IMG/VR virus record: IMGVR_UViG_3300025759_000298
Coordinates: 1-35,082 of that record
Direction: 5' to 3' (one strand)
Length of the DNA stretch: 35,082 bases
Source of the DNA: a virus
Under the pieces are notes generated by a model that was not told the DNA's origin, searched no databases, and worked only from the letters and a program-made list of their open reading frames with translations. Below are positions 1,119 through 35,082 of this stretch, piece after piece. Each line of letters opens with the position of its first letter. Within the stretch, counting starts at the first letter, position 1. The translations under genes were made by a program, and so were the position numbers.

Positions 1119-1435
1119 TGGCTTTTAAAATAAACCCACCATATCATATTGATAACACGCCGATATATAAAGTTGATTTTAAAGATGGTGCTGTTCACGG
1201 TGTTACTTTAAACACAGGGGCAATTGTTATAAATAGGCATTTACCTACTGACGTAGAGTCCCAGACTGTTAGTCATGAGATGGTTCATGTAGATCAAATA
1301 AAACGCGGTGATTTGTCTTATGATGATAAATATGTTTATTGGTGTGGTAAAAAATATCCAAGATCTAAAATGAAAGAAGGTGATAAAAATTTACCTTGGG
1401 AAAAAGAAGCTTATGCAAAACAAAAAAGAATTTAA
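1118..1435 (+). CDS. Mini zinc-metallopeptidase-like protein (HEMVH)
   Basis: 105 aa. An HExxH motif (SHEMVHVDQ, near residues 53-57) follows a short beta-rich N-terminal part that ends in a run like GAIVINRHL. A conserved-looking tail YWCGKKYPR and a later WEKEAY could supply a Glu third zinc ligand, as in gluzincins. Small proteins with this layout occur in marine phages, usually as hypotheticals. The sequence supports a metal-binding helix. Whether it cleaves peptide bonds, and whether the target is peptidoglycan, a virion protein or a host protein, is unknown. It starts by TAATG overlap with the preceding gene, and its 3' end overlaps the holin-like gene by 23 nt, so it may belong to a lysis group. 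Confidence 0.65.
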   Translation: MAFKINPPYHIDNTPIYKVDFKDGAVHGVTLNTGAIVINRHLPTDVESQTVSHEMVHVDQIKRGDLSYDDKYVYWCGKKYPRSKMKEGDKNLPWEKEAYAKQKRI

Positions 1436-1871
1436 AGACACAACAGTTGGTAAATTATTATTTGGAGCAGCGTCAGTTGTAAACCCAACTTTAGCTAATG
1501 TATTAAAAGGAGTAACATCTCCTCAAGAAGCTATAGCTGAAATTACAAAATCTCCTGCGCCAGTTGAAGATAAAATTAAACTTCAACAATTAATATTTGA
1601 TCAACAGAATAAAGAAATAGAGGCCATTACTTCAAGATGGAAAGCAGACTCAATGTCTGATTCTTGGATGTCTAAAAACGTAAGACCATTAGTTTTAATA
1701 TGGTGTATTGTTATATTTTCATTTGCTGGAATATTAGATAGCGTAGAAAGTATACCTTTTACAATACATGATAATTGGAACTCTACTTTTGAGAATGTTA
1801 TGATGGCCGTTGTATTAGCCTATTTCGGAGGACGCACGACAGAAAAAGCAACTAGTATATTTAAAAAGTAA
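1413..1871 (+). CDS. Holin-like membrane protein (GTA/3TM holin type)
   Basis: 152 aa from the ATG at 1413 (MQNKKEF...), preferred over an upstream ATG at 1380 because it follows an A/G-rich stretch and gives a normal N-terminus. Segment W-K-A-D-S-x-S-D-S-W followed by SKNVRPLVL resembles the phage holin family known from gene transfer agents (3TM holin). At least one clear membrane segment lies near residues 93-111 (LVLIWCIVIFSFAGIL) and a second hydrophobic stretch near 128-141 (MMAVVLAYFGG). The N-terminal helix (LLFGAASVVNPTLANVL) may be a third. Its expected role is to permeabilise the inner membrane at the end of infection; the M15 endolysin lies over 31 kb downstream in the same transcription direction. 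Confidence 0.6.
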   Translation: MQNKKEFKDTTVGKLLFGAASVVNPTLANVLKGVTSPQEAIAEITKSPAPVEDKIKLQQLIFDQQNKEIEAITSRWKADSMSDSWMSKNVRPLVLIWCIVIFSFAGILDSVESIPFTIHDNWNSTFENVMMAVVLAYFGGRTTEKATSIFKK

Positions 1872-9079: not shown

Positions 9080-10561
9080 ATGCCCTTAAATCCCTTATTT
9101 GGTTCGTTGAACCCGTCACAATCTCAACAGATTTTGTCGGACAACTACCTTAGTTTTACGGATGGTACTAGAGATTTTTCTCAACAGTATCTTCCTGAAA
9201 TCTATGAAGCTGAAGTAGAGCGTTATGGAAACAGAACGTTATCTGGCTTCATTAGAATGGTCGGCGCTGAAATGCCGATGACTTCTGACCAAGTAGTTTG
9301 GTCTGAACAAAACAGATTACATATATCTTACGATACTGTACAGCCGTTAGGTGCTGCAGGAAACGTATTAGATTTATTTGTAATTCCAACAGCAGGACTT
9401 ACTAACGTAATTACTCCAGGTATGACTGTAGTAATTCTACCTAAGTCTGGTGGTGATTCAATTAAAGCGTATGTTGCTGACTCTGGTATTGTTCCAGGAT
9501 CTGCTCTTAACGCAAATGAAATCCAAGTTTTCCCATATATGGAAACTTCTGCTGGTGGTGGACAAATTCCTGCTGATGCTGTAGGATATAAAGTATTCGT
9601 TTATGGTTCTGAATATCCAAAAGCTAGCTCAGGAGTATTAGAAAATGTTGAGCCTTCTTTCACTCAGTTCTCCAACAAACCAGTTATTATTAGAGATAGA
9701 TACGCTGTATCTGGATCTGATACTGCACAGATTGGTTGGGTTGAAGTAACTACAGAAGATGGTGCAACTGGATACTTATGGTATCTAAAAGCTGAATCTG
9801 AAACTAGATTAAGATTTGAAGATTACTTAGAAATGGTAATGGTTGAAGGTGAATTAGCCGATGTAAATGGTGCTTCTGCAAACCTATTCCATACTCAAGC
9901 ACAAGCTGGTATTACAGACTTTAATGCTAACAACGCTGCTTTACTAGGTACTGAAGGTTTATTTGCTGCTATTGAAGACAGAGGAAATGTATTCTCTGCT
10001 TTCGCTGGTGCATTAGCTGACTTTGATACAATTCTTGAGAACTTAGATAGCCAAGGAGCTATTGAAGAAAATATGTTATTCTTAGATAGAGCTACTGAGC
10101 TTGATATTGATAACATGCTTGCTTCACAAAACTCTTATGGTATCGGTGGTACATCTTATGGTGTATTTGAAAACTCTGAAGAAATGGCTCTTAATTTACA
10201 GTTCTCAGGATTTAGAAGAGGATCTTACGATTTTTATAAGACAAGCTGGAAATACTTAAACGATGCTTCTACAAGAGGTGGATCTGAGTTCTTTACTTCA
10301 GGTGACGACATCGAAGGAGTATTAATTCCTGCTGGTACTTCAACTGTTTATGACCAAATTCTTGGTACAAACATTAGAAGACCTTTCTTACACGTAAGAT
10401 ATAGAGCTTCTCAAACTGATGATAGAAGAATGAAGTCATGGATCACTGGTTCTGTCGGTGGTGCTTTCACTTCTGATCTTGACGCAATGGAAGTTCATTT
10501 CTTATCTGAGAGATGTTTATGTGTACAAGGTGCTAACAACTTCGTGTTGATGACATCTTAA
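9080..10561 (+). CDS. Major capsid protein
   Basis: 493 aa. It follows the scaffold-like gene, is the right size for an HK97-fold capsid protein of crAss-like or related podoviruses, and is encoded with a visibly higher share of C-ending codons than its neighbours, as expected for the most highly expressed gene. The N-terminal region (SQSQQILSDNYLSFTDGT) has no recognisable cleavage site. Residues about 85-180 look like a Gly/Val-rich beta insertion (VITPGMTVVILPKSGGD), possibly a surface domain. The C-terminal part has RRPFLHVRYRASQTDDRRMK and ends in a hydrophobic strand. A UUCG-loop terminator follows nine bases after the stop. Assignment rests on context and size, not on a catalytic motif. 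Confidence 0.85.
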   Translation: MPLNPLFGSLNPSQSQQILSDNYLSFTDGTRDFSQQYLPEIYEAEVERYGNRTLSGFIRMVGAEMPMTSDQVVWSEQNRLHISYDTVQPLGAAGNVLDLFVIPTAGLTNVITPGMTVVILPKSGGDSIKAYVADSGIVPGSALNANEIQVFPYMETSAGGGQIPADAVGYKVFVYGSEYPKASSGVLENVEPSFTQFSNKPVIIRDRYAVSGSDTAQIGWVEVTTEDGATGYLWYLKAESETRLRFEDYLEMVMVEGELADVNGASANLFHTQAQAGITDFNANNAALLGTEGLFAAIEDRGNVFSAFAGALADFDTILENLDSQGAIEENMLFLDRATELDIDNMLASQNSYGIGGTSYGVFENSEEMALNLQFSGFRRGSYDFYKTSWKYLNDASTRGGSEFFTSGDDIEGVLIPAGTSTVYDQILGTNIRRPFLHVRYRASQTDDRRMKSWITGSVGGAFTSDLDAMEVHFLSERCLCVQGANNFVLMTS

Positions 10562-10569
10562 CATTTTAT

Positions 10570-10602
10570 AAGGTAAAGGGCGCTTCGGCGCCCATATACC
10601 TT
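10570..10602 (+). terminator. UUCG-loop hairpin after the capsid gene
   Basis: Inner stem GGGCGC (10578-10583), tetraloop TTCG, GCGCCC (10588-10593). An outer stem AAGGTA (10570-10575) pairs with TACCTT (10597-10602). The following T run is short, so it may act as a partial terminator or as 3'-end protection of the abundant capsid mRNA. Confidence 0.75.
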
Positions 10603-22247: not shown

Positions 22248-25200
22248 ATGCTAGACGGTTATAGTTTAAAATCTATTATAGATCAAATGAAATCCGATGG
22301 TAGATCTTTTGAAGAGATACAATCAGTCGTGCGTGAATATAAACGTAGAAAAGATTCACAGCCTGTTAGAGATATAGTTGGCATAACTATGGAGGATAAA
22401 CCGTTAGAAGAGTTTGTTGCACCTGAAAAACAACCGTTAAGGTATATAAATTTTCAAACTAAAAACAAAAAAACTGGAGCTACAGAGTTTAAAATAGTAT
22501 ATGAAGATGAGTATAATAACATATATAAAGATCAAGAAGATTATCCTAATACATTTGAAGAATATGCTGGTGGTTTAAATACTGAAATAAAAACCGTTGA
22601 TGAAGTTGAACCTGTAGATATTGGATCAGTTGAAAAAACTTCTAAAGATAAAACACTTGAAGCTTATAAAAAAGAAGTAGCTGAATTAAGAGATTTAATA
22701 ACTCCAGAGAATTTTGAAAAAGAAATAATAGATTACATATTTCAACCATATAAAGCGCAACAAGTAAGACAATCAGAAGACATTGGCTTAACACAGCAAG
22801 AAGTTGATGAGCAAAATTTACCTGAAGATTTAATAAGTTTAGTAAGAGAAAAAGGTAAAGAAAATATTACTATAGAAGATGTTCAAGAAAATTATGGTGA
22901 ACAGATATTTAATTTTATAAATGAAAAAAGAAGAGACGGTGTAAACGCTATTACAGGTAAATATAAAAATGATTTTGATCTTACCGAAGAAGATGTTGAG
23001 CGTTTAGAGTTTGATAGTTTACCAGGCGAACTAGGTATTGCTGCTGAGCAAGTATCTACTTATAATAAAGGTGTTACAGCTAGATATCGCAGTGATTTAG
23101 CTAAGGCTGGATTTACCGCAGCAGAAATAGAATCTTTAACAAAAAACATGGTTCCAGGTCAAACATATAAAATACCTACATTTGAAGGTGAAAGAGATGT
23201 AATAGACTTAGGAGTAAGTAAAGATGGTAAGTATTCTGCATTATACCCAGAATATTGGGGAAAGAAAAAATATACATTAGCTAAATTCAATAGAGAAGCA
23301 GAGGTAAATAGATACATAACAAATTCTAATAAGCTTTACGAAAACTACGAAAAAGATCTTCAAAAACAAGTTGCTTTTGTAAATCAAAAATCTGCTCCAT
23401 ATATAGAAGAATTAAAAGCTATAGAAACAGAGCTTAGAGTTTTAAACGCTACAGGCGCGCCAGCTGATAATAAAATAGCTATTGAAAACTTAAACAGAAA
23501 AAAACAAGAAGTAATAGATAACTATCATAAATCTGGAATAAAAAAAGATCAAGAAGTTTTAAACAATAACATGCAGTTTGCTTTAGATTATGCTAACCAA
23601 CTAGAAAAAACAAGTGAAGAGTTAGATGATTTAAACCTAATGATGTATAGTTCTAAGCTTAACTATGACATGTTTGATAGGCTTTTGTCAAATGTAAATC
23701 AACAGATTATTGCACCTGCTGCTATAACTATTGGTTCAGTTAGTGCATTAACAGTTGGTAATTTAATGGATTTATTTGATCCAGTTGGGGGAAACGCAAA
23801 AGATATATTTAATTCATCAATAGATTATTACGCTTTAACAGAAAAGACGGCTCAACAATTTCCTAAAGCCGCTTCAATTAAAGACGTAGGATCTTTAAGT
23901 GATTTTGGTTTTTGGTCGCTTAACACTTTAGTTGATGGTGCTCCTAGTATTTTAGCTGTACTTGGGCCACAAGCTGGAGCAAGGATAAGTACTAAAATAG
24001 CTGCAAAAGGTTTAACAGGTTCTGCTAAAGATATAATAAAGAAAAACATTTTACAACAAACGGCCCTTAAAAATGCCTCTAAATTATCAATGGGATTATT
24101 TTTTGGTATGTCAGGTGGTGGTAAGTTTGGAGAATTAGAAACTTCGTGGAGAAACGCTGAAGAAAATATTAAAAACTTAAGAGCTCAAATAGATAATACT
24201 AGTGATTTAAATTTAAAACAAGATTTACTACAGCAATTAGATTATTACGAAGACGCAGCTGATTCTGCCAGATGGCAAAGAGCTTTAACAGGTGTTTTTT
24301 ACGGTGGAGTAGAAATGTATTCTGAAAAACTAGGTACATTAAGATATATTAACGGTATACAAAAAGTAAATAAATATTCTAGACGAACTGGTATTCAAGA
24401 CACGTTTGTAAAAGGCTGGACTACAAGTAAGTATTGGAAAAATAGACTTAAGCAATTTGGCTATGGTACATTGGAAGCTGGAAAAAATGTAGGTATAGAA
24501 GTTGTAGAAGAAATAGCTGCTCAGATGGGTCAAAACATGATGGATAAAGTAATCATGGGTAATACAAAATCTTTAATGGAGGGTGTTGATATAGACTTAA
24601 TGAGTAGAAGCGCTATGATAAGTCTTGGCTTACAAGCTCCACAAATGCTTGGTAATGTTAATAATATTTTTCAAAACGAATTAAGTACTTATAGACAAGT
24701 AAAACAAAATCGAGCAGATACAACAAGGCTTCTAGAAATAGAACAACAACTTGAGCAAGGCAATTTATCAAGAGCTGAAATTAATGTATTACAAAAAGAA
24801 AAGAAAGCGCTTCAAGATAAGTTAGTATTAGGAGGTTTTATGACTTACCAAAAATGGGGTGCAATGTCTAAAGAAGAAAAACTTCAGTACATTCAAGATC
24901 GAGAAGCTTTAAATTTTAAAGAACAGCAATATTATCAAATGATTTCTAATCCTAGATTTGGTGAGAAAGGATTTAGAGAGACGTTAGAGTCTATGGAAAA
25001 AGAAATAATAAAAGATAATGAAAAGCTAGGTGAGTATTTAAATAATAAAAAATATAAAGAATATAAAGAGTATACTAAAAGCTTAGAAGGAACAGGTAAG
25101 ATGCTTACTAATCCTACTATAGCTGCGGCTAATATTGATTTATATACAGCTGCTTTAGAATTAGCAAACCATCATTACGATGGAGAAACTTTAAATTTAA

Positions 25201-28200
25201 AAGATAATCAAGCTGTTGAAGATTATATTACTGAAAATAACTTGGATCAAGAGTCGGCTAATCAATTAAGAAATAGTTACGCTTTTGTAAATGGTAATCA
25301 AATGGTTATTAATGAGGCAAAAGTATTTGGTTCAATAGCAGGTCAAATGGCTATTACGGAGGTTGGTGCTATAGTTAATTTACAAACAGAAAGTAGTTTT
25401 GAAAGATTTAGAGCCGCTATATCTCCACTGCACGAGTTAGCTCACATGGAAATAAATAGCAAAAAAGTATTTAGTGATTTATTTCCTGAAGCAAAAGCCG
25501 CAGCAACAAGCATTATCGATGTGCTTGGCAAGCAAGTTCAAGAAGGAAAATTAAAAGAAGAAGTTTTTAATAATATTAAAAATGTTCTTGATAAAGCATA
25601 TACAGATGAAAACGGCGTTGTAGATGTAGACGAAATATTAACTACATTAAGTGAGTCGATGATCGCCGGTGATGTTACGCAAAGCATGTTTGCAGAAATG
25701 TATGGTATGAAATATTTTTTAAACGGTATGTTTAGAAAAGCATTTCCTAAGATAGCATCTATTGTTAGTCCATTTAAAACAGCTAATGACATGTTTAATT
25801 TTGTTAGTAATTTTGTTGACAAAAAAACAAGCTATGTAAGATCTGCTGTTATGGTTCCTGAAGAAAAGAAAGAAACCGTACAAACTTCTGCGGCTATGGA
25901 CATGATGAAAGAACTTACTAACGAAGAGTTGGTTGAAGTAATTAAATCACCATCTACATCACAAGCACAAAGACAAGCAGCTGAAAATGTTTTATTTGAT
26001 GCGTCTGGTAAAATAGGTTTAAAAGCTATTGGATATGATACTCGTAAAGGTGATATATCTAGAGAAAATGTATTAGCTGAAATACAAGCTGAAATAGTTA
26101 AAAGAGATTTAATAAATAAGTTTACTCCAGTAGATCCTAAAACAGGTGAAGCTAGAACATGGAGCACATATGTAGGTAATCAAATAGGTTTTGAAGCTCC
26201 TAATATTTTTGAAAAAGCTAAAACAATAGCAAGAGAAGGTGAGCGTATAGATAGACCAGAAGCTAGACAAGTAGCTGAAGAACAAGTTGAACCAACAAGA
26301 GAAGCGCCAGAAGTAAAACCAACTATAGATATATTTACTATATTACCAGAAGAAGTTAGACAAGAAGCTCAAGAAGAAGTTGATAGAAAAATAAAAGAAA
26401 ACAATATTGATATAAGTGATAAAGAGTTATCTTTTAAAGAACTAAAACAAATAGCTCCTTATGAAACGCTTGCTAAATTTTTTAATATACCTGTATCTCG
26501 TATTACAAATCCAAAAGATAATTTAAGAAAAGGAGATAACATATCTGAGATACAAAGATATATACTAAAAAACATTGATAGACTTATTAATACAAGACCA
26601 CAGGGTAATGCAGAAACAATACAGACCCAAGCTTTTGGAGGTGTTAAAGCTAAGTTGGAAGGTGGTGAATCAACAGGTTTATCTAGAAAATTTTTAAATA
26701 CAGAGTACGATAAAGTATTAGATGCTAAAGGTAAACAAGTAAAAATAAATAATAACCTACAATATAAATTAAGACCAGGTAATAGAACTAGATTTTTAGA
26801 AGCTAGTGGTATTACAAACAATAAAGTTGATCCTGATTTTACTCCAAGATCTGGTGAGTCTCAATTTATTAAAGGTGTTTTAGAAATACTAGCTAGAAAC
26901 ATGGGGCTTAGCTCGTTTGGTAAATATGTTAATGAACAAGTTGAAACTGGTGTGGTTGAAAAACCTAGAGCTGTAAAAGTTAGAGCTAAAGCAGCTGCTG
27001 GTAAAGCTCCGCTACTTAAATTTAGTAAGCCAGTGTTTACCGGTATGGCAGATAACTGGAACAATATATTAGCTACTGGTAAAATTAAACCTATTAATTT
27101 AAAGACTGAAGAAGGTAGAGCAGAGTTTAAATCATGGTTGTTAACAGAGGCTCCTAAATATATGACAGAAGCCTTTATGAAAAACTATGGTACTTTTACT
27201 GGAACCACAGATGGTTTAACTATAGAAGAGCTTGGTATAGTTAATGGTAAGTATGTAGAAGAAGGAGATAAGTTTCTTGTAACTTATTTTGATGAGTCGG
27301 GTAAAACAAGAAGATTAAGAGACTATGCTGGCAACTTTGCTTTTTTAAATAACGATGAAGTTGAAGCTCTTATAGACAATATAGAGTCATTTGCTAAAGA
27401 AGATTCTGATATTACGGCGGCTGTAACTAGAGACACATATACAAATATAGAAAACAAACTTAATAACAAAGAATTTGTTGATCGACAAGATAAAAAAATA
27501 AAAGGTTTGTTTAAAATATTTCAAGCTTTTCAACAGATGATGAAAGATGATAAAGCTAATATACCTTTTGTAGCAGCTTTATTATCTTCTACAAGTGCTT
27601 ATCAAGGTCACTTTATAAGAACATCTGCGCCTATTAGATTTTATAGCGTAAACAGACAAGGTGGAATAACTGAAGAACACACGTTGCCAGCTAGTATGGT
27701 TGCTAAATATTTATTTATACAAGCAGCTAATGGTACTTTAAATGATAAAACATTTGATGGTGTAAGAAAAAATTATTTCCAAGGTGGTTTAAGAAAGTAT
27801 GATGATAAAAAATTAAAAGGTATAGGTATTGACGGTAGAAAATATAATTACGTAGCTCAAGCTCCAGAAGGTTGGACATTAGATCAAAGCATATGGTTAA
27901 GGTATTTTAATCCTAATGTAGCAAACACTAGAGGTGGTATTGATCCTAATAGTATTATGCTAGCTAATAACCAAACTGCAGCTGAACTATTAAATTTAAA
28001 TGTTAAAGGACAACCAACTACTCAAGCTATAAATAAAGCTGAAATAAAAGTAGCACCAAAAAATAATAAAAAGCAACCTAAGATTAGTCAATTTAGTAAA
28101 CCGGTTTCTAATCAAACTGTTATAGATAATATGACTAACATTGACAAAGCTTTAGACAATGCTAGAAATATTAATGCAGAGCAAAAAGGTATAAGCATAT

Positions 28201-30713
28201 ATGATTTTGATGATACACTAGCTTTTAGTGCTAGTAAAGTTATTGTTAAAATGCCAGATGGTACTACTAAAAAAATAACACCAGCTGAGTTCGCTGTGCA
28301 AGATGAAAAATTAAAGTTTGATGGAGCTGAGTTTGACTTTAGCGAGTTTACTAAAGTAGTTAAAGGTAGACCAGGACCATTAGTTCCTAGACTTAAAAAA
28401 GCAATTGATAAGTTTGGTAATAAAAATATATTTGTTTTAACAGCTAGACCTCAAGCATCAGCAGAAGCTATATACGATTTCTTAAAAGGTATTGGATTAG
28501 AAATACCATTAGATAATATAACTGGTTTAGAAGATGGTACTCCTCAAGCTAAAGCAAACTGGGTTATAAGTAAAGCTGCTGAAGGTTATAATGATTTTTA
28601 CTTTGTAGATGATTCAATTAAAAATGTTAAAGCTGTAGCAAAAGTACTAGACCAAGTTGATGTTAACTCTAAAGTTCAACAAGCTAAAATAAGATTTAGT
28701 AAATCATTAGACGCAGACTTCAACAAAATGATTGAAGGTAAAACGGGTATTGGCGCTGAAAAAGAATACTCAGCTGCTAAAGCTCAAGTTGTAGGTGCTA
28801 GTAAAGGTAAGTTTAAATTCTTTATTCCTCCATCAGCTGATGATTTTGTAGGGTTAATGTATTCATTGTTAGGTAAAGGTAAAGAAGGTGATGCTCAAAT
28901 GGCTTGGCTTAAAACACATTTACTTGATCCTTATGCTAGAGGTATGGCTAGTATTTCTAGAGATAGAATTGCTATGCAAAATGATTATAAAGCTCTTAAA
29001 AAAGAACTTGGTATTGTTCCTAAAAATTTAAGAAAGAAAATACCTGGTGAAGATTTTACTATTGAGCAAGCTGTAAGAGTTTATATTTGGAATAAACAAG
29101 GCATGAACATACCTGGTCTTTCAAAAACAGATTTAAAAGAATTAAATGATTTTATAACTAGTAGTAAAGACTTACAAATATTTGCCGACAACTTACTTAA
29201 TATATTAAAAGGAGAACAGTATGCTAAACCAAGAGCTGGTTGGTTAGCTGGAACTATAACAACTGATTTACTTGAAACATTAAATACTACTAAACGAGCA
29301 AAGTATTTAGAAGAGTGGCAGAATAATGTTGACATTATATTTTCTGAAAAAAATATGAACAAGCTTGAGGCTGCTTTTGGTAAACCATATAGAGAGGCTT
29401 TGGAAAACATGCTGCAAAGAATGAAGTCTGGTAGAAATAGAAACTTCTCTGGTGATAGTTTAACAGGTAAATTTACAGACTGGTTAACAAATAGTATTGG
29501 TACTATAATGTTCTTTAATACTAGATCGGCACTACTTCAAACTATATCAGCTGTAAACTTTATAAACTTTAGTGATAATAACATACTAGCCGCTGGTCAA
29601 GCGTTTGCAAACCAAAAACAATTTTGGAAAGATTTTATGTTCTTAATGAACTCAGACTTTTTAAAAGAAAGAAGAGGTGGTTTAAGGTTTAACGTAAATG
29701 AAAGCGATATAGCAGATATGGCTAAGCAAGGTGGGCCAAGAGCTATTATATCTAAAATGTTAGAGTTTGGATTCTTACCTACGCAAATAGCTGATAGTTT
29801 TGCTATTGCATCTGGTGGTGCATCAATGTATAGAAACAGAATTAAAACATATCTTAAACAGGGTATGGATCAGAAAGAAGCAGAGGAAAAAGCTTTCTTA
29901 GATTTTAGAGAAATAGCAGAAGAATCTCAGCAGTCTAGTAGACCTGATAGAATATCAATGCAGCAAGCTGGACCATTAGGTAGAATGATATTAGCATTTG
30001 GTAACACACCTATGCAGTACAATAGGTTAATAGGTAAAGCTATATCTGATCTTAGAAATAAAAGAGGTGATTGGAAAACTAATGTTTCTAAAATAATATA
30101 TTATGCGTTTGTACAAAACTTAATATTTACATCTACACAACAAGCGTTGTTTGCTATTGGATTTGGAGATAGTGATGAAGAGGAAAAAGATGAAAAAATG
30201 GTTAGCATCGCCAACAGCATGAGTGATACATTATTAAGAGGTTTAGGTTTTGGAGGCGCTGTAGTTTCTGTAGTTAAAAATGCTATACTAAGAGCTAAAA
30301 AAGAAAGTGAAAAAGATAGACCTAACTATGAAAAAATAGCTTATGAAATTGGTAGGTTATCTCCACCTATATCTTCTAAGCTTTCAAGAATAAATCAAGC
30401 TGCTAGATCTTATCAATGGGACAAAGATAAAATGGAAACAATGGGATTTGATGTACAAAACCCAGCATTTTTAGCTGTTGCAAATGTTATATCGGCCGCA
30501 ACAAACGTTCCAATAGATAGAGCAATAAGAAAAATGATAAACATAGACGATGCATTTACTCAGGACTTAATGATGTGGGAAAGACTTGCGTTATTAGGAG
30601 GTTGGCAAGCTTGGGAAATAGGTATTGATAAAGATGTCTCAACAAAAAAACAATTAAATAAATTAAAATTAAGATCTGGATTAAAAATAAAAGGAATAAA
30701 ACTAAAAAACTAG
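22248..30713 (+). CDS. Giant polyvalent internal virion protein with HExxH and HAD motifs
   Basis: 2821 aa. N-terminal 480 residues: charged, helical. Hydrophobic stretches near 485-510 (APAAITIGSVSALTVG) and 563-578 could enter membranes. H1062-E-L-A-H1066 is a zinc-peptidase signature. FSKP/FSKS motifs stand at F1592, F1949 and F2150. Residues about 1983-2140 carry all HAD motifs: DFDDT (D1986, D1988), T2065 in LTARP, K2102, and D2121-D2122 in FVDDS. From 2155 on runs a conserved module of giant phage proteins (IPPSADDFVGLMY, then QAGPLGRMILAFGNTPMQYN near 2572-2591). It is the likely T7-gp16 equivalent: packaged, ejected and delivering enzymes with the DNA. Phosphatase and protease activities are inferred from motifs. 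Confidence 0.75.
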   Translation: MLDGYSLKSIIDQMKSDGRSFEEIQSVVREYKRRKDSQPVRDIVGITMEDKPLEEFVAPEKQPLRYINFQTKNKKTGATEFKIVYEDEYNNIYKDQEDYPNTFEEYAGGLNTEIKTVDEVEPVDIGSVEKTSKDKTLEAYKKEVAELRDLITPENFEKEIIDYIFQPYKAQQVRQSEDIGLTQQEVDEQNLPEDLISLVREKGKENITIEDVQENYGEQIFNFINEKRRDGVNAITGKYKNDFDLTEEDVERLEFDSLPGELGIAAEQVSTYNKGVTARYRSDLAKAGFTAAEIESLTKNMVPGQTYKIPTFEGERDVIDLGVSKDGKYSALYPEYWGKKKYTLAKFNREAEVNRYITNSNKLYENYEKDLQKQVAFVNQKSAPYIEELKAIETELRVLNATGAPADNKIAIENLNRKKQEVIDNYHKSGIKKDQEVLNNNMQFALDYANQLEKTSEELDDLNLMMYSSKLNYDMFDRLLSNVNQQIIAPAAITIGSVSALTVGNLMDLFDPVGGNAKDIFNSSIDYYALTEKTAQQFPKAASIKDVGSLSDFGFWSLNTLVDGAPSILAVLGPQAGARISTKIAAKGLTGSAKDIIKKNILQQTALKNASKLSMGLFFGMSGGGKFGELETSWRNAEENIKNLRAQIDNTSDLNLKQDLLQQLDYYEDAADSARWQRALTGVFYGGVEMYSEKLGTLRYINGIQKVNKYSRRTGIQDTFVKGWTTSKYWKNRLKQFGYGTLEAGKNVGIEVVEEIAAQMGQNMMDKVIMGNTKSLMEGVDIDLMSRSAMISLGLQAPQMLGNVNNIFQNELSTYRQVKQNRADTTRLLEIEQQLEQGNLSRAEINVLQKEKKALQDKLVLGGFMTYQKWGAMSKEEKLQYIQDREALNFKEQQYYQMISNPRFGEKGFRETLESMEKEIIKDNEKLGEYLNNKKYKEYKEYTKSLEGTGKMLTNPTIAAANIDLYTAALELANHHYDGETLNLKDNQAVEDYITENNLDQESANQLRNSYAFVNGNQMVINEAKVFGSIAGQMAITEVGAIVNLQTESSFERFRAAISPLHELAHMEINSKKVFSDLFPEAKAAATSIIDVLGKQVQEGKLKEEVFNNIKNVLDKAYTDENGVVDVDEILTTLSESMIAGDVTQSMFAEMYGMKYFLNGMFRKAFPKIASIVSPFKTANDMFNFVSNFVDKKTSYVRSAVMVPEEKKETVQTSAAMDMMKELTNEELVEVIKSPSTSQAQRQAAENVLFDASGKIGLKAIGYDTRKGDISRENVLAEIQAEIVKRDLINKFTPVDPKTGEARTWSTYVGNQIGFEAPNIFEKAKTIAREGERIDRPEARQVAEEQVEPTREAPEVKPTIDIFTILPEEVRQEAQEEVDRKIKENNIDISDKELSFKELKQIAPYETLAKFFNIPVSRITNPKDNLRKGDNISEIQRYILKNIDRLINTRPQGNAETIQTQAFGGVKAKLEGGESTGLSRKFLNTEYDKVLDAKGKQVKINNNLQYKLRPGNRTRFLEASGITNNKVDPDFTPRSGESQFIKGVLEILARNMGLSSFGKYVNEQVETGVVEKPRAVKVRAKAAAGKAPLLKFSKPVFTGMADNWNNILATGKIKPINLKTEEGRAEFKSWLLTEAPKYMTEAFMKNYGTFTGTTDGLTIEELGIVNGKYVEEGDKFLVTYFDESGKTRRLRDYAGNFAFLNNDEVEALIDNIESFAKEDSDITAAVTRDTYTNIENKLNNKEFVDRQDKKIKGLFKIFQAFQQMMKDDKANIPFVAALLSSTSAYQGHFIRTSAPIRFYSVNRQGGITEEHTLPASMVAKYLFIQAANGTLNDKTFDGVRKNYFQGGLRKYDDKKLKGIGIDGRKYNYVAQAPEGWTLDQSIWLRYFNPNVANTRGGIDPNSIMLANNQTAAELLNLNVKGQPTTQAINKAEIKVAPKNNKKQPKISQFSKPVSNQTVIDNMTNIDKALDNARNINAEQKGISIYDFDDTLAFSASKVIVKMPDGTTKKITPAEFAVQDEKLKFDGAEFDFSEFTKVVKGRPGPLVPRLKKAIDKFGNKNIFVLTARPQASAEAIYDFLKGIGLEIPLDNITGLEDGTPQAKANWVISKAAEGYNDFYFVDDSIKNVKAVAKVLDQVDVNSKVQQAKIRFSKSLDADFNKMIEGKTGIGAEKEYSAAKAQVVGASKGKFKFFIPPSADDFVGLMYSLLGKGKEGDAQMAWLKTHLLDPYARGMASISRDRIAMQNDYKALKKELGIVPKNLRKKIPGEDFTIEQAVRVYIWNKQGMNIPGLSKTDLKELNDFITSSKDLQIFADNLLNILKGEQYAKPRAGWLAGTITTDLLETLNTTKRAKYLEEWQNNVDIIFSEKNMNKLEAAFGKPYREALENMLQRMKSGRNRNFSGDSLTGKFTDWLTNSIGTIMFFNTRSALLQTISAVNFINFSDNNILAAGQAFANQKQFWKDFMFLMNSDFLKERRGGLRFNVNESDIADMAKQGGPRAIISKMLEFGFLPTQIADSFAIASGGASMYRNRIKTYLKQGMDQKEAEEKAFLDFREIAEESQQSSRPDRISMQQAGPLGRMILAFGNTPMQYNRLIGKAISDLRNKRGDWKTNVSKIIYYAFVQNLIFTSTQQALFAIGFGDSDEEEKDEKMVSIANSMSDTLLRGLGFGGAVVSVVKNAILRAKKESEKDRPNYEKIAYEIGRLSPPISSKLSRINQAARSYQWDKDKMETMGFDVQNPAFLAVANVISAATNVPIDRAIRKMINIDDAFTQDLMMWERLALLGGWQAWEIGIDKDVSTKKQLNKLKLRSGLKIKGIKLKN

Positions 30714-30719
30714 CTATGC

Positions 30720-31043
30720 GTGAAAAAAATACTTGTCCTATTTGCGGTGGTACTTGTGGGTTGTGCTAGTACACAATCAATAGGAACTGATAAATACTAT
30801 CACTTTGCAGCTGGAGCAGCTACAGAAGTAGTAGGAAATAAAATGGATTTAACTCCTACAAGCGCTGCTTTTGCTATAGGATTTGCAAAAGAGCTGTATG
30901 ACTATGCTGACTATGGTAAATTTGATGCTAAAGATTTATTAGCAACATGGTTGGGCGGGGTTGTTGTTAACTATATAATAAAAATAAAAAATGAAAGAAA
31001 AAATAAAAAAAGTAATAGACAAAATCCAAGAGGGTTGGAATAA
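30720..31043 (+). CDS. Small lipoprotein, possible outer spanin
   Basis: 107 aa starting with GTG at 30720. A signal peptide with a lipobox, MKKILVLFAVVLVGCAST, predicts cleavage before Cys15 and lipid attachment. The mature part has DKYYHFAAGAATEVVG, a pattern seen in small phage and bacterial lipoproteins (YfiM-like), a helical stretch (AIGFAKELYDYADYG) and a hydrophobic LLATWLGGVVVNYII near 80-95. The tail is Lys/Asn rich. It lies seven bases after the giant gene and before other envelope-directed genes. An o-spanin role is inference. An ATG four bases upstream opens only a 17-codon frame. The 3' end overlaps the 29-aa peptide gene. Confidence 0.6.
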   Translation: MKKILVLFAVVLVGCASTQSIGTDKYYHFAAGAATEVVGNKMDLTPTSAAFAIGFAKELYDYADYGKFDAKDLLATWLGGVVVNYIIKIKNERKNKKSNRQNPRGLE

Positions 31044-31080
31044 ATTATTATACAAACTAATGTTTAAAAAATACAAATAA
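30991..31080 (+). CDS. 29-aa basic amphipathic peptide
   Basis: The frame encodes MKEKIKKVIDKIQEGWNKLL and a further nine residues ending KKYK. Lys and hydrophobic residues alternate with helical periodicity, giving an amphipathic, strongly basic helix. It overlaps the end of the lipoprotein gene by 53 bases and its stop overlaps the next ATG as TAATG, the same coupled junction used by at least five other gene pairs in this window. That coupling is the main argument for translation. It could be a membrane-active lysis helper or only a coupling leader for the next gene. Confidence 0.45.
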   Translation: MKEKIKKVIDKIQEGWNKLLYKLMFKKYK

Positions 31081-32255
31081 TGAAAAAACTATTTACCATA
31101 ACACTATTTTTATTTAGTTTAACTTTAAATTCTCAAAATATTTTTAAAGATTTATATAAAGATTTTTTAAAATATGGGACTATATATATAGCTGGTGATA
31201 TAGATAATCCTAAAGAAGAAGTAAAAGATTATTTTGTTAGAACAAATCCTAACGGTAATTTATATTCTGCACCTGTAGTAGTTGACGGCACAGACTATTA
31301 CGACTACGATTATAGATATGGTTTTGGTATACGTAAATTAGCTAGGTTTGATTACGAAGTAAAAGGTAAACAATACTACGATGGAACAGAAAGCAACGTG
31401 GGTTTATCTGCCACTAACTCACCTGTAAAAGGTTTGGAATATGTATTTCATACTGAGAAAGAAAGATCTAGAGATGAAGTATTTAAAAACCATAGATACT
31501 TTATTAAACATAGTGGTAAAAACCACATGGTTAAACTAGAAAGTAGAGCACAAGGTAAAGTTGATTTTAAATATAAATCAGCAGAGGTTAGAGCTAAGCT
31601 ACCTATTGGTAAAAAGTTTAGCGTGTCTGCTGGAGCTATGTATCGTACACATGAAAGACCATATGGTTATAATCCAGTAGAAATATGGTTAAACGAAACA
31701 AATGAGTCAGGACAAATTGTAAATCCCTGGTATACGCTAGGATTTATGTATGGTTATGACGATATATATTATACACAACAAGATCAATTTGGAAACGAAA
31801 TATCTGATTGGTACTGGATAGATGAAGAAGGTACTATCGTAGCTAATACTGATCTTGAATTTAGAGATACAGTGTTTGCTGAATTAATGAATCGATATAA
31901 TCACGAAGTATGGGACGAACTAGATGCGTTTGGAGTATTATCTCCAGTGATCGGTTTCGACTACTACCATTATAAAAATAACTTCTGGCTTCACGCTTAT
32001 GGTTCTTACTTACTACCATATCATAAATATGTTAAAGGCGATGAAGACTTTAGTTATTTAAATAGAAATAATTGGGGACTTGGAGGTTTAGTACAAGACT
32101 CAGAGTTAGAACAATGGGAAGATTATCAAGCTGGTATAGTGTTTGGGTGGAAGTTAAGCAAAAGCATTGGATTATTTGTTGAAGGAGAGTACACTAAGTT
32201 TTGGGACAGTAAAATATATAACGGATCTGTAGGATTAAACATAACATTAAAATAA
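31080..32255 (+). CDS. Exported beta-rich protein, outer-membrane barrel candidate
   Basis: 391 aa. A signal peptide, MKKLFTITLFLFSLTLNSQ, is of flavobacterial type. The mature chain is rich in Tyr, Trp, Asp and Gly with many alternating strands: FSVSAGAMYRT, PVIGFDYYHYKNNFWLHAYG, then YQAGIVFGWKLSKSIGLFVEGEY. The end, YNGSVGLNITLK, is strand-like as in outer-membrane barrels, though the final residue is Lys rather than Phe. Unusual for a virion or lysis gene, it probably goes to the host outer membrane, where it might alter the receptor, block superinfection or aid release. The family was not recognised and barrel topology is inferred from composition. Confidence 0.6.
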   Translation: MKKLFTITLFLFSLTLNSQNIFKDLYKDFLKYGTIYIAGDIDNPKEEVKDYFVRTNPNGNLYSAPVVVDGTDYYDYDYRYGFGIRKLARFDYEVKGKQYYDGTESNVGLSATNSPVKGLEYVFHTEKERSRDEVFKNHRYFIKHSGKNHMVKLESRAQGKVDFKYKSAEVRAKLPIGKKFSVSAGAMYRTHERPYGYNPVEIWLNETNESGQIVNPWYTLGFMYGYDDIYYTQQDQFGNEISDWYWIDEEGTIVANTDLEFRDTVFAELMNRYNHEVWDELDAFGVLSPVIGFDYYHYKNNFWLHAYGSYLLPYHKYVKGDEDFSYLNRNNWGLGGLVQDSELEQWEDYQAGIVFGWKLSKSIGLFVEGEYTKFWDSKIYNGSVGLNITLK

Positions 32256-32256
32256 A

Positions 32257-32544
32257 ATGGCAAAGCAAATAGGTGAAGATACTAAAGTAACGTTAGATTT
32301 AAAAACAATAGGACTAATTATTGGAGGAGCAGTTTCAATAGCAACGCTTTATTTTGCATTACAAGCTGATATAGCTCTTGCTAAAGAACTACCAGCACCT
32401 GTTATCGATAGAGTTGAATATGATTTAAAAGATGAATTAATTCGTCAAACAATTATGGATACTCAAGAAGATGTAGAAGAAATAAAAGAAACTATAGACA
32501 AAATCGACGAACGTTTGTACGAGTTGCAACAAAGAGGTAGATAA
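32257..32544 (+). CDS. Single-span membrane protein with coiled coil, possible inner spanin
   Basis: 95 aa. A short cytoplasmic N-terminus is followed by one membrane segment (residues about 17-37, IGLIIGGAVSIATLYFALQA) and a helical tail of about 55 residues with EEIKETIDKIDERLYELQQ, a predicted coiled coil. This N-in, C-out single-pass design is that of i-spanins such as lambda Rz, though it is shorter. A lipoprotein with the o-spanin outline lies 1.2 kb upstream and the endolysin 0.6 kb downstream. It starts two bases after the preceding stop. Spanin function is inference from topology and context; a small structural or regulatory membrane protein is the alternative. Confidence 0.6.
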   Translation: MAKQIGEDTKVTLDLKTIGLIIGGAVSIATLYFALQADIALAKELPAPVIDRVEYDLKDELIRQTIMDTQEDVEEIKETIDKIDERLYELQQRGR

Positions 32545-32545
32545 T

Positions 32546-32944
32546 ATGAAATACTTAAATATAATTTTATTATTAATATCATTTAACATATCTGCTCAAG
32601 AGTGGATTACTGATAATAATTTTGATAATAAAATAAATGAAAGACAAGCTTTTGGTGATGATCAAACAAAGCCTGTGATTGTAGAGTTTTATGCTAAGTT
32701 TAACGATGCAAATAAATTTGAGCAGTGGTCAGAACTAAAAGACGTTATATATTATAGAGCAGATATAGCTGCGTGCCCAGCTGCTAAAAAGAAATATAAG
32801 GTACGTATGGCGCCAACATTAATTATATTTAAAGACGGTATTAAAGAAACCGTTTTTAAAGCAGGACTAGACTTAATGTTACCGGCGGATTTAAATGAAA
32901 TACAAAAAGCAGTTGATGAGGTAAATACTGCAAGTCAATTTTAA
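32546..32944 (+). CDS. Exported thioredoxin-fold protein lacking CxxC
   Basis: 132 aa. A signal peptide, MKYLNIILLLISFNISAQE, ends with the SAQ/E site usual in Flavobacteriia. The mature part has the thioredoxin pattern: beta strand KPVIVEFYAKF, helix, YYRADIAACPAAKKKYKV, then MAPTLIIFKDG with the cis-Pro. At the site where thioredoxin has WCGPC this protein has AKFNDAN, so there is no redox pair; the only Cys is in AACP. It is therefore probably not an oxidoreductase but a periplasmic binding or chaperone-like variant. Expression next to other exported proteins suggests a joint envelope function late in infection. Confidence 0.65.
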   Translation: MKYLNIILLLISFNISAQEWITDNNFDNKINERQAFGDDQTKPVIVEFYAKFNDANKFEQWSELKDVIYYRADIAACPAAKKKYKVRMAPTLIIFKDGIKETVFKAGLDLMLPADLNEIQKAVDEVNTASQF

Positions 32945-32948
32945 TCAA

Positions 32949-33098
32949 ATGAAAAAAAGAAAATTAAACAGCACAAACCCTAAATATTATAAAGTTAAAG
33001 AAGAAGAAGTTAAAGAGCATAAAGAGTTAATAGCTACTATACGTAAAGGTAGAAAGCGTAACATAAGAGTTTATGCTGTGTTTAGTGAAACAGAATAA
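32949..33098 (+). CDS. 49-aa basic hypothetical protein
   Basis: Starts with ATG at 32949, four bases after the preceding stop, and ends one base before the endolysin start. The sequence is Lys/Arg/Glu rich (MKKRKLNSTNPKYYKVKEEE, then IRKGRKRNIRVYAVF). No membrane segment. The tight spacing on both sides argues that it is a true small gene; function unknown, possibly nucleic-acid binding because of the basic patch. Confidence 0.5.
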   Translation: MKKRKLNSTNPKYYKVKEEEVKEHKELIATIRKGRKRNIRVYAVFSETE

Positions 33099-33099
33099 T

Positions 33100-33561
33100 A
33101 TGAAAATAAGTGATCACATAACCTATGCTGAAGCAATACATTCTAATACAGCAAAGAGAAAAGGAATAGACAACACACCTAATCCAAATCAAATAGAGGC
33201 TATGAAGTTATTAGCTGAAAAAGTATTTGAACCATTACGCAAGTGGGTTGGTGGACCAATAAAAGTTAATTCTTTTTTTAGATCACCAGAACTTAACGAA
33301 GCAATTGGCGGATCTAAAACTTCACAGCATTGTAAAGGTCAAGCAATTGATGTTGATGATGTCTATGGTTATAAAACTAATGCAGAGATGTATCATTGGA
33401 TAAAAGAAAACTTAAACTTCGACCAAATGATATGGGAGTTTGGTACTGATACACAACCTAATTGGGTACATATATCATATGTATCTGAAGAAGATAATAG
33501 AAACAGATGTTTAAAAGCCTATAAAGATGATATGAATAGAACTAAATATAAAACGATATGA
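33100..33561 (+). CDS. Endolysin, peptidase M15 (D-Ala-D-Ala carboxypeptidase type)
   Basis: 153 aa from the ATG at 33100, one base after the previous stop; an ATG at 33073 would overlap that gene. It shows the M15A layout: IKVNSFFRSPELNEAIGG, then SQHCKGQAIDVD with zinc ligands His and Asp (H-x6-D), an acidic motif near WEFGTD, and WVHIS with the third ligand. It cleaves peptide cross-links of peptidoglycan in the periplasm. No signal peptide is present, so export probably depends on a holin (candidate at 1413-1871). Its 3' end overlaps the next gene by an ATGA junction. Confidence 0.9.
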   Translation: MKISDHITYAEAIHSNTAKRKGIDNTPNPNQIEAMKLLAEKVFEPLRKWVGGPIKVNSFFRSPELNEAIGGSKTSQHCKGQAIDVDDVYGYKTNAEMYHWIKENLNFDQMIWEFGTDTQPNWVHISYVSEEDNRNRCLKAYKDDMNRTKYKTI

Positions 33562-33848
33562 GTAAAAAAGATTTTAAACCACACAAAATGTATAAAAATG
33601 GTAAAGCCGTAATGGCTAATACATATCAAGAACACTTATCATTAGGTAGAAAAGGATATGATCACTCAGCTGTACCTTTTAAAATGGTTCCTGAAACACC
33701 ATTGTTTGGCAAGATCAGCGGTCCTTGTAAAGCGGCTGCTAAAAGAAAATTTGATGTTTGGCCTAGCGCTTATGCTTCTGGTTGGGGTGTAAGATGTACT
33801 AAAGCTGGTGGACCAAGTAAAATGGGTAAATCTAAAAAGAAAAAGTAA
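33558..33848 (+). CDS. Small Lys-rich protein 1
   Basis: 96 aa. It carries SGPCKAAAKRKFDVWPSAYA followed by SGWGVRCTKAGG, a motif I have seen in small proteins of marine phages and large DNA viruses (DUF5872-like; this name is from memory). It has two Cys and an extremely basic C-terminus of repeated Lys. Starts in an ATGA overlap with the endolysin and ends in a TAATG overlap with the next gene. Charge suggests nucleic-acid binding or packaging into the virion with DNA; no enzyme motif. Confidence 0.6.
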   Translation: MSKKDFKPHKMYKNGKAVMANTYQEHLSLGRKGYDHSAVPFKMVPETPLFGKISGPCKAAAKRKFDVWPSAYASGWGVRCTKAGGPSKMGKSKKKK

Positions 33849-34132
33849 TGATGTATTCTGGTAACTCTCCATTCATGAAGAAAAAGAAAAGTAAAGTAAA
33901 GGGTGGAGGAACTAAAAAGGTTTGTTTACCTGCTGCTAAAGTAAGATCAATGAGTAAGGCGGAAAGAGAAAAAGTTGTTCGTGCTAAAGAGTCTGCTGGT
34001 AAAAAAGGAAAGTATAAAAGATCAAGCAAGTCTAATGTTAAAGGCGCTCGTAAAAAAGGAGCTACACTACGCGACTGGTTTGAAAAAGAAAATTGGATTA
34101 ACGTTAAAACAGGAGAGCCTTGCGGCAAATAA
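33848..34132 (+). CDS. Small Lys-rich protein 2
   Basis: 94 aa, beginning at the ATG in the TAATG junction; the next codon is also Met. N-terminal GNSPFMKKKKSKVKGGGTKK, a middle helix SMSKAEREKVVRAKESAG, a basic linker, and a C-terminal TLRDWFEKENWINVKTGEPC. The DWF-x5-W-x-x-x-TG-x-PCG pattern looks like a conserved small-virus-protein motif. A single Cys lies in each half. Probably works with its two neighbours, which share size, charge and coupling. Confidence 0.55.
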   Translation: MMYSGNSPFMKKKKSKVKGGGTKKVCLPAAKVRSMSKAEREKVVRAKESAGKKGKYKRSSKSNVKGARKKGATLRDWFEKENWINVKTGEPCGK

Positions 34133-34136
34133 TATT

Positions 34137-34421
34137 ATGGCATATCAACTACCACCAATTTTAAAAGTAGATAAATCTACTTTAAAATGTAATAAACCTA
34201 GAAAAACACCTGGTCACAAAACTAAATCTCATATAGTTAAAGCGTGTGAAGGAGGTAAAGAAAAAATAATTAGATTTGGTCAGCAAGGAGTAAGCACTGC
34301 TGGTAAAAAGCAAGATGCTAAATCAAAAGCAAGACGTAAGAGCTTTAAAGCTCGTCATGCTAAAAATATTAAGAAAGGTAAAATGTCCGCTGCATATTGG
34401 GCTAATAAAGTAAAATGGTAA
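34137..34421 (+). CDS. Small Lys-rich protein 3
   Basis: 94 aa from the ATG at 34137, four bases after the previous stop; longer upstream starts in this frame would run inside the neighbouring gene. The C-terminal RRKSFKARHAKNIKKGKMSA followed by AYWANKVKW is a recurrent motif in cyanophage and other marine phage proteins (DUF6321-like, from memory). The middle has a Cys/His set (LKCNKP, PGHKTKSHIVKACEGG) that could bind a metal. It is the last + strand gene before the terminator. Confidence 0.6.
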   Translation: MAYQLPPILKVDKSTLKCNKPRKTPGHKTKSHIVKACEGGKEKIIRFGQQGVSTAGKKQDAKSKARRKSFKARHAKNIKKGKMSAAYWANKVKW

Positions 34422-34468: not shown

Positions 34469-34499
34469 AAGGGAGGCTTAATCGGCCTCCCTTTTTTTT
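34469..34499 (+). terminator. Strong rho-independent terminator of the late operon
   Basis: AAGGGAGGC (34469-34477), loop of 7 bases, GCCTCCCTT (34485-34493), followed by a continuous run of T to 34499. It sits exactly between the converging + genes and the minus-strand reductase gene and abuts the latter's stop codon (34498-34500). Read from the minus strand there is no T run after the hairpin, so it mainly serves the + transcript. Confidence 0.9.
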
Positions 34500-35082
34500 A
34501 TCCATCACAGGCCACGCAATCTTCCATAGCTTTAGAAGCTATATCCCCACGTAGTACTGATTCAGTCCTCATATAATATAAAGTTTTAATTCCTTTTTTC
34601 CAAGCGTCTAAATGAACTTGATTAATCCATTTAGGGGAAGCTTCACTAGGAAAAGCTAAATTTAAACTAACAGACTGATCTATATATTGCTGGCGTATAC
34701 CAGCTTGTCTTACTAATTCTAGCTGATTTATCTCTTTAAACGTTTTAAATACTTCTTTAGTATCATCGTCTAATTCTTTTATATCTTGAACAGATCCACC
34801 ATCTGCTAAAATTTTATCCCATGTTTCTTTAGTATTTATACCTATGTCTTCTAATACTTTAACTAACGTAGGATTTTTTCTTATGAACGTGCCTTTTGCT
34901 GACTGCTCTGTAAAAACATTTGCTGCCCACGGTTCAATCCCGGGAGAGATATTCCCAGCAAGCTTGCTATTAGATACAGTGGGAGCAATAGCACGTAAAT
35001 GGGTATTGCGAAAGCCAGTACCGACACACCAAAGAGGTTCTCCGTAAACGTCAGCAAGAGCCATTGAAGCTCTTTCAGACTC
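34498..35082 (-). CDS. nrdA: Ribonucleotide reductase class I large subunit, C-terminal part
   Basis: The frame is open to the window edge (ESERASMALADVYGEPLW continuing), so the N-terminal part lies beyond 35082; the Met at 35064 is internal. About 194 residues are visible. Recognisable segments: APTVSNSKLAGNISPGIEP, the substrate/active-site region of class I and II reductases; KTLYYMRTES with the paired Tyr equivalent to E. coli Y730-Y731, which carry the radical from the small subunit and point to class I; and a C-terminal CVACDG with the CxxC pair that accepts electrons from thioredoxin or glutaredoxin. It makes deoxynucleotides for phage DNA synthesis. A small subunit gene is expected outside the window. 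Confidence 0.9.
   Translation of the reverse strand, partial: ESERASMALADVYGEPLWCVGTGFRNTHLRAIAPTVSNSKLAGNISPGIEPWAANVFTEQSAKGTFIRKNPTLVKVLEDIGINTKETWDKILADGGSVQDIKELDDDTKEVFKTFKEINQLELVRQAGIRQQYIDQSVSLNLAFPSEASPKWINQVHLDAWKKGIKTLYYMRTESVLRGDIASKAMEDCVACDG

What the first reader, a model, noticed from the sequence alone, without database searches (positions are those of the whole stretch)
31080..32255. Phage-encoded secreted, probably outer-membrane, beta-rich protein
A signal peptide plus Tyr/Trp/Gly-rich alternating strands up to the C-terminus suggests a barrel placed in the host outer membrane. Such genes are rare in lytic phages; lambdoid phages use them (Lom-like) for altering the surface. 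Here it is among lysis-linked genes of a presumed Bacteroidota phage, so roles in superinfection exclusion, receptor masking or release are open.
Basis: partly seen in the sequence, partly recalled or inferred. Interest (0 to 1): 0.55.

Follow-up and report, generated by a model that had tools for sequence, protein, structure and literature searches.

The report
Phage outer-membrane barrel, three-gene envelope cassette
A marine virus, probably of Bacteroidota bacteria, carries a gene for a barrel-shaped protein likely to sit in its host's outer membrane; in nearly all sampled relatives the gene comes with the same two small envelope genes, usually near the cell-wall-cutting enzyme, which suggests a so far undescribed way to break the outer membrane when the virus bursts the cell.

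Summary
The ORF is real (31080-32255, 391 aa). It has a signal peptide and a confident AlphaFold2 model (pLDDT 82.9, pTM 0.74) of a 12-strand outer-membrane barrel. At least 570 IMG/VR stretches encode relatives, yet tblastn found none in 50,697 phage records, and Pfam, PHROGs and NCBIfam give no significant family. The main result lies outside the given coordinates: the barrel belongs to a three-gene unit with a 95-aa single-TM coiled-coil protein (TMcc, 32257-32544) and a secreted thioredoxin-fold protein without CXXC (TRX, 32546-32944). Of 165 distinct sampled loci, 154 hold all three; the other 11 end before one can tell. The unit occurs in two gene orders and in phages with unrelated head genes. 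An endolysin lies within 4 kb in 61 of 73 fully flanked loci. Best explanation (0.4): an outer-membrane-disruption module of the lysis cassette, the barrel doing the job of an o-spanin, a possibility named but not shown by Kongari et al. 2018. Against it: co-divergence of the three does not consistently exceed that with the endolysin, TMcc also resembles holin families weakly, and nothing has been tested at the bench.

The parts
31080..32255 (+). OMP: signal peptide plus 12-strand outer-membrane beta-barrel, 391 aa
32257..32544 (+). TMcc: 95 aa, one hydrophobic segment (from about residue 16) followed by an acidic, probably coiled-coil region; i-spanin-like or holin-like layout; starts 1 base after the OMP stop
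   Evidence: coiled coil judged by eye, no predictor run
32546..32944 (+). TRX: signal peptide plus thioredoxin fold (PF00085 E 2.7e-7) without CXXC; C-terminal Phe; starts 1 base after the TMcc stop
33073..33561 (+). Peptidase M15 endolysin (PF08291 8.3e-17; phrog_894 2.1e-32)
30720..31043 (+). Small YfiM-like lipoprotein (GTG start), optional neighbour; a possible alternative o-spanin
1380..1871 (+). Holin (phrog_3427, 1.3e-17), far from the cassette in this contig

Best explanation
The barrel is the outer-membrane member of a three-protein envelope module (OMP, TMcc, TRX) made with the lysis genes. Proposed working: OMP and TRX are exported by Sec, OMP is inserted into the outer membrane, TRX stays in the periplasm, and TMcc sits in the inner membrane with its coiled coil in the periplasm. 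Once the holin and the M15 endolysin have removed the wall, TMcc, perhaps through the redox-dead TRX as an adaptor, engages the barrel and the outer membrane is torn or fused, as spanins do. Shown by computation: signal-like N-termini, barrel fold, thioredoxin fold without CXXC, operon layout, co-occurrence, endolysin neighbourhood, presence in phages with unrelated head genes. Inferred: TMcc topology, contacts among the three, and the lytic role.
For: Co-occurrence: 154 of 165 distinct sampled loci hold all three, 151 in the main scan and 3 more when short edge pieces were scanned (L163, L296, L343); the other 11 end before one can tell. Close packing: TMcc to TRX within 20 bases in 139 of 151 loci, OMP to TMcc in 83 of 122. 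Endolysin (M15 or amidase) within 4 kb in 61 of 73 loci with full flanks (50 of 62 OMP-first, 11 of 11 OMP-last) and in 125 of all 151, same strand in 125 of 125. In L005 the order is TMcc, TRX, OMP, Amidase_2, holin (phrog_3427 3.7e-18). The unit occurs with the window's TerL type (20 of 30 records), with T4-type head genes (gp23 in 2 of 12 records, T4 portal in 1 of those) and with an unrelated portal (L051; L049's record, 1 of 30). A diverged second TMcc copy has relatives in Pelagibacter phages, in HTVC027P two genes before an M15 gene. A lipobox ORF, needed for a classical o-spanin, was not found within 4 kb in 34 of 73 loci. Kongari et al. 2018 (PMC6139136, section 15 read): 'an OMP could act as an o-spanin'; their spanin-less list includes Croceibacter and Bacteroides phages.
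Against: Pairwise divergence of OMP does not consistently follow TMcc or TRX better than the endolysin (OMP-first, 88 loci: OMP-TMcc 0.37, OMP-TRX 0.48, OMP-M15 0.58; OMP-last, 20 loci: 0.66, 0.83, 0.67, so only OMP-TRX there exceeds it). Each OMP-last locus's nearest OMP-first relative by OMP (65-84% identity) has a TRX only 22-31% identical (27 loci). TMcc members hit a holin PHROG weakly (phrog_1296, 13 of 23, best 8.8e-4) and, more often, families of unknown function (phrog_1009, 17 of 23); two Rz-like spanin PHROGs hit 2 of 23 each (best 0.0036). 12 of 73 fully flanked loci have no M15 or amidase within 4 kb, on contigs of 24-167 kb, one of them (L077) with the window's TerL type. The large, presumably extracellular loops are as conserved as the rest (20 of 62 invariant columns in 128 of 391 positions, counted), which a pure anchor would not need. 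A lipobox ORF that could serve as o-spanin is present near 39 of 73 loci. No experiment.
Confidence: 0.4

Rival explanations
1. The barrel changes the host surface: it masks or blocks receptors, or otherwise excludes superinfecting phages, with TMcc and TRX as helpers of its export or of an inner-membrane block to DNA entry.
For: Barrel with large loops; OMPs up to 84% identical occur in the two gene-order types while the TRX of those pairs are 22-31% identical, as if phages of similar hosts shared the surface protein; the YfiM-like neighbour has weak hits to a PHROG named Cor superinfection exclusion protein (E 0.0032, residues 1-37 only) and to an Exc2-family lipoprotein (E 0.012).
Against: Loops are not variable (20 of 62 invariant columns); it does not explain the tie to a membrane-anchored coiled coil, to a redox-dead thioredoxin and to the endolysin.
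Confidence: 0.2
2. The lysis role belongs to TMcc plus a lipoprotein (or TMcc is a holin-like protein), and the barrel is a separate passenger such as a channel.
For: phrog_1296 holin hits in 13 of 23 TMcc members; a lipobox ORF near 39 of 73 loci, among them the YfiM-like lipoprotein type of the window.
Against: In 34 of 73 loci no lipobox ORF was found within 4 kb, whereas no locus shows the barrel to be missing where the sequence is long enough to tell.
Confidence: 0.15
3. The barrel is an outer-membrane enzyme (for example a lipid- or LPS-cutting hydrolase in the manner of OMPLA) that weakens the outer membrane for release.
For: Many invariant charged and polar residues in strands and loops (for example K152, E154, R156, H191, D258, H305, H315).
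Against: No significant match to any enzyme family; I recognised no catalytic motif by eye; structural matches shown are generic barrels.
Confidence: 0.1
4. It is a virion protein.
For: The gene lies just downstream of the structural module and the 2821-aa protein, with one small gene between.
Against: A signal peptide would take it out of the cytoplasm where virions assemble; no virion homologue found.
Confidence: 0.03

Closest known systems
Two-component spanins (Rz/Rz1 type; Kongari et al. 2018, PMC6139136)
   Same: Small protein with one N-terminal hydrophobic segment and a likely coiled coil, an outer-membrane partner, near the endolysin, closely packed genes
   Different: Outer-membrane partner is a barrel, not a lipoprotein; a third, thioredoxin-like secreted protein goes with them; function untested
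Lom/Ail outer-membrane proteins of lambdoid phages
   Same: Phage-encoded outer-membrane barrel
   Different: 12 strands instead of 8 (recalled), longer, no Pfam match, part of a three-gene unit
UniProt A0A516LKJ4 (unnamed viral protein in BFVD)
   Same: Same fold over most of the length (Foldseek E 2.1e-28, TM 0.69/0.78, 25% identity)
   Different: Gene context unknown here; no name in the tables at hand
NanC/KdgM, CymA, OmpG and TamA/BamA barrels in the PDB
   Same: General outer-membrane barrel (Foldseek NanC 1.8e-5; VIA-align Z 11.0 TamA, 183 aligned, rmsd 4.1; Z 10.9 CymA, 217 aligned, rmsd 6.9)
   Different: About 7-11% identity, tied Z values over many unrelated barrels, no POTRA domain, no shared context
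Pelagibacter phage HTVC027P gp15 and HTVC121P gp53
   Same: Related to the second TMcc copy (37% and 27% identity, E 2e-10 and 2e-6) and matched by the TMcc HMM (1.9e-4, 4.5e-4; an uncultured relative, AP013543, 8.1e-9); gp15 lies two genes before an M15 gene
   Different: OMP and TRX HMMs find nothing in the 8-10 kb fetched around them

Membership tests
Two-component spanin | o-spanin is an outer-membrane lipoprotein with a lipobox | tested here: not met
   OMP has an SPase-I-type signal followed by Gln, not a lipobox Cys; only 3 of 155 full-length relatives hold any Cys after residue 25
Two-component spanin | i-spanin: type II inner-membrane protein, N-terminal TM, periplasmic coiled coil | tested here: inconclusive
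   TMcc has one N-terminal hydrophobic segment and an acidic C-terminal region (mean net charge -7.0 over 108 loci); orientation and coiled coil not determined; two Rz-like PHROGs hit 2 of 23 members each
Two-component spanin | genes in the lysis cassette | tested here: met
   endolysin within 4 kb in 61 of 73 fully flanked loci; 12 of 73 without
Two-component spanin | needed for outer-membrane disruption | not testable with these tools
   no experiment
Lom/Ail family | match to the Pfam Ail/Lom model | tested here: not met
   no such hit among 25 members at E 0.1
Lom/Ail family | 8-strand barrel (number recalled) | tested here: not met
   12 long strands in the model
Omp85 (BamA/TamA) | N-terminal POTRA domains | tested here: not met
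   only 33 residues, signal peptide included, precede the first strand of the model
Omp85 (BamA/TamA) | barrel fold of this family | tested here: inconclusive
   Z about 9 to 11, tied with other barrels
Thioredoxin (for TRX) | thioredoxin fold | tested here: met
   PF00085 in 17 of 19 members at E 0.1, best 1.7e-8; PDB thioredoxins by profile; by sequence profile, not by a structure model
Thioredoxin (for TRX) | CXXC active site | tested here: not met
   0 of 148 complete TRX hold CXXC

The most novel reading that the evidence does not exclude
A spanin-type machine whose outer-membrane half is a beta-barrel and whose halves are bridged by a redox-dead thioredoxin-fold adaptor with a fixed aromatic C-terminus: an outer-membrane lysis route of marine Bacteroidota phages, shared among lineages with podovirus-, T4- and other portal-type heads, of a kind named as possible by Kongari et al. 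2018 and not described in the papers that searches listed.
Probability: 0.25. Interest if true: 0.85.

Novelty: new variant of a known kind. Interest (0 to 1): 0.6.

Why it matters
How phages break the outer membrane is worked out mainly for spanins, and in 91 of 677 phage genomes surveyed none could be recognised (PMC6139136). A gene unit that is common in marine viral contigs, nowhere shown to be incomplete in the sample, shared by phages with unrelated heads, and built of one outer-membrane, one secreted and one membrane-anchored protein near the endolysin gives that open question concrete genes to test.

Tried and rejected
Lom/Ail kinship: rejected. Cellular origin: the one genome-contig scan gave 8 loci, titled as Woesearchaeota, Alphaproteobacteria/Maricaulis or Bacteroidetes/Flavobacteriaceae MAGs; 7 of 8 carry a window phage gene outside the three-gene unit, the eighth (L093, 3.7 kb) shows only the unit, so I read them as phage contigs inside MAGs; the scan used two peptide patterns, so a distant cellular homologue is not excluded. 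Cultured phages: tblastn of OMP (window and the divergent L093) and TMcc (window and L052) found nothing, and TRX only a Streptomyces phage thioredoxin at E 0.007. HMMs of the three found nothing in the fetched parts of MW202828, phi38:1, elemoE 6-9C, phi19:3 and Gundel_1.

Co-evolution as support for a complex: the first test (108 loci) gave OMP-TMcc 0.15, OMP-TRX 0.22, TMcc-TRX 0.77, OMP-M15 0.50; split by gene order only OMP-TRX in the 20 OMP-last loci exceeds OMP-M15, so I do not use it as support. Lipoprotein counts depend on the pattern: 20, 28 and 39 of 73 loci; the first missed the window's own lipoprotein type, the second those with a longer N-terminus, so the widest is quoted. A PDB sequence search with the OMP profile gave one chance-level hit (E 1.2). 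In the structure searches no specific known relative stood out.

Papers: PMC6139136 (passages and section 15), PMC12596118 (passages; it says Bacteroidetes phages exclusively use unimolecular spanins, which speaks against spanin-lessness of that group as a whole). Search listings seen only: spanin with Bacteroid (9 papers), phage-encoded outer membrane protein with Flavobacteri (1), glutaminyl cyclase with Bacteroidota (0), Cellulophaga phage proteomics (3), disruptin with spanin (55, 10 listed), o-spanin with beta-barrel (5, 4 listed), phage-encoded porin (0). No listed title or abstract start describes this unit; the full texts were not read.

Sampling limits: each viral scan keeps the 80 loci closest to its query (183, 332, at least 558, 320 and at least 570 relatives were found), so distant TMcc or TRX genes without OMP could exist unseen.

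Full report
Observation. The ORF at 31080-32255 is real, 391 codons from ATG. It starts with a lysine-led hydrophobic segment ending in S-Q; the Gln is invariant in the 25-sequence alignment, not in the 81-sequence one, and an [AGSN]-Q pair follows the hydrophobic stretch in 145 of 155 full-length relatives. Two AlphaFold2 runs gave a barrel: pLDDT 68.7 with 40 sequences, 82.9 and pTM 0.74 with 81, with 12 long strands and large insertions at 192-283 and 312-347. If both ends are periplasmic, as barrel convention has it (inference), these insertions face outside. Foldseek and VIA-align match barrels of many families at similar, moderate scores; the one close structural relative is an unnamed viral protein, A0A516LKJ4. 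Tyr+Trp are 12.6% against 5.8% for 15 other window CDSs.

Phage and host. The window is a 35,082-base virus record. Its terminase is 63% identical to that of MW202828 and 32-43% to those of Flavobacterium elemo, Cellulophaga phi38:1 and phi19:3, and Tenacibaculum Gundel_1 phages, so a flavobacterial host is likely. The fetched parts of five such records show no OMP, TMcc or TRX.

Family size. Relatives are encoded in 183 stretches by single-sequence search and at least 570 by profile; the lowest pairwise identity among 142 loci compared is 42%. tblastn found none in 50,697 phage records. No significant Pfam, PHROG or NCBIfam family (best PHROG E 0.16). Of eight loci in MAG contigs, seven carry other window phage genes.

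The unit. Downstream of OMP lie TMcc and TRX, each after a 1-base gap. Five scans (OMP, TMcc; profiles of TMcc, TRX, OMP) gave 336 viral loci, which collapse to 165 distinct ones (the window's own locus and L082-L094 not counted). All three genes occur in 151. A rescan for short edge pieces completes three more (L163, L296, L343), making 154, and shows TRX beside OMP in L336. The other 11 end too early: within about 0.3 kb of the last known gene (L016, L021, L027, L028, L117, L270, L310, L336) or 0.66-1.6 kb after OMP (L022, L053, L342). In L016, L021, L022, L053, L310 and L342 no piece of the missing partner is the direct neighbour, and in L022, L053 and L342 the intervening genes are of kinds that separate OMP from TMcc in complete loci such as L033; absence of the partner there is neither shown nor excluded. 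Orders among the 151: 105 OMP-TMcc-TRX, 28 TMcc-TRX-OMP, 18 with a second, diverged TMcc. Searching with TMcc instead of OMP: 78 of 80 loci hold OMP; of the other two, L117 begins inside a TMcc gene and L172 begins with a piece of an OMP C-terminus.

TRX matches thioredoxins (17 of 19 members; PDB) but none of 148 complete ones has CXXC; the site reads FNxxN in 124. It keeps the Pro-Thr of the cis-proline loop in 148 and ends in Phe in 146, Tyr in 2. A redox role is therefore unlikely; an adaptor or chaperone role is inferred.

Lysis link. An M15 or Amidase_2 endolysin lies within 4 kb in 61 of 73 loci with 4 kb on both sides, and in 125 of all 151, always on the same strand. If one endolysin lay anywhere in a 60-kb genome, roughly one in six would be expected (estimate). 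The 12 misses lie on contigs of 24-167 kb; of the ten listed in detail, four carry a protein like the L183 one that matches DUF5675 (by eye for the other three). In L005 the order is TMcc, TRX, OMP, amidase, holin.

Spread. Of 30 records, 20 encode the window's TerL type, with both gene orders. Of 12 tested, two encode a T4-type gp23 and one of these also the T4 portal. L051 and the record of L049 encode an unrelated portal. OMPs of the two gene orders are up to 84% identical, while the TRX of each nearest pair are 22-31% identical, so OMP genes seem to have been exchanged between lineages (inference). Within each order, OMP divergence follows TRX better than the endolysin only in the 20 OMP-last loci (0.83 vs 0.67), not in the 88 OMP-first ones (0.48 vs 0.58).

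Interpretation. A barrel, a secreted protein and a membrane-anchored coiled coil, found together throughout the sample and near the endolysin, fit an outer-membrane step of lysis best. Kongari et al. (PMC6139136, section 15) wrote that an OMP could act as an o-spanin and listed Croceibacter and Bacteroides phages as spanin-less; a 2025 survey (PMC12596118, passages) says Bacteroidetes phages exclusively use unimolecular spanins. The unit does not meet the spanin definition: the outer-membrane partner is not a lipoprotein. So it may work like a spanin without being one. The conserved loops, the holin-like PHROG hits of TMcc, lipobox ORFs near 39 of 73 loci and the lack of consistent co-divergence keep the rivals open.

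Noticed in passing
window 22248-30713: 2821-aa protein with no PHROG match at E 0.001; by eye it holds a HAD-like stretch (FDDTLAFSASK), and a separate ORF with a similar stretch occurs in L244 at 10004-10570.
   Followed up: no
window 30720-31043: YfiM-like lipoprotein with a GTG start (NCBIfam YfiM 9.6e-5, below its cut-off), relatives in 28 of 80 OMP loci.
   Followed up: partly
L115, L130, L131, L138, L243, L244, L248: Second TMcc copy with a shared EFR[IV]KWPRGEMGALPDDAKQDL stretch, related to proteins of Pelagibacter phages near M15 or packaging genes.
   Followed up: partly
window 34498-35082 (-): C-terminal part of a ribonucleotide reductase large subunit (PF02867 3.4e-37) on the opposite strand, at the edge of the late genes.
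   Followed up: no
window 2424-3023: GroES-like co-chaperonin (phrog_13932, 7e-26) just before the terminase, as in phi38:1 and elemoE 6-9C.
   Followed up: no
L087, L088, L092, L094: Contigs filed under one Woesearchaeota MAG (RS366) carry this phage unit or part of it; they look like phage contigs in the wrong bin.
   Followed up: partly
L235 6736-6990: An ordinary CGPC thioredoxin-like gene lies directly after the redox-dead TRX.
   Followed up: no
window 33558-34421: Short, very lysine-rich ORFs after the endolysin; similar ones recur in related loci.
   Followed up: no
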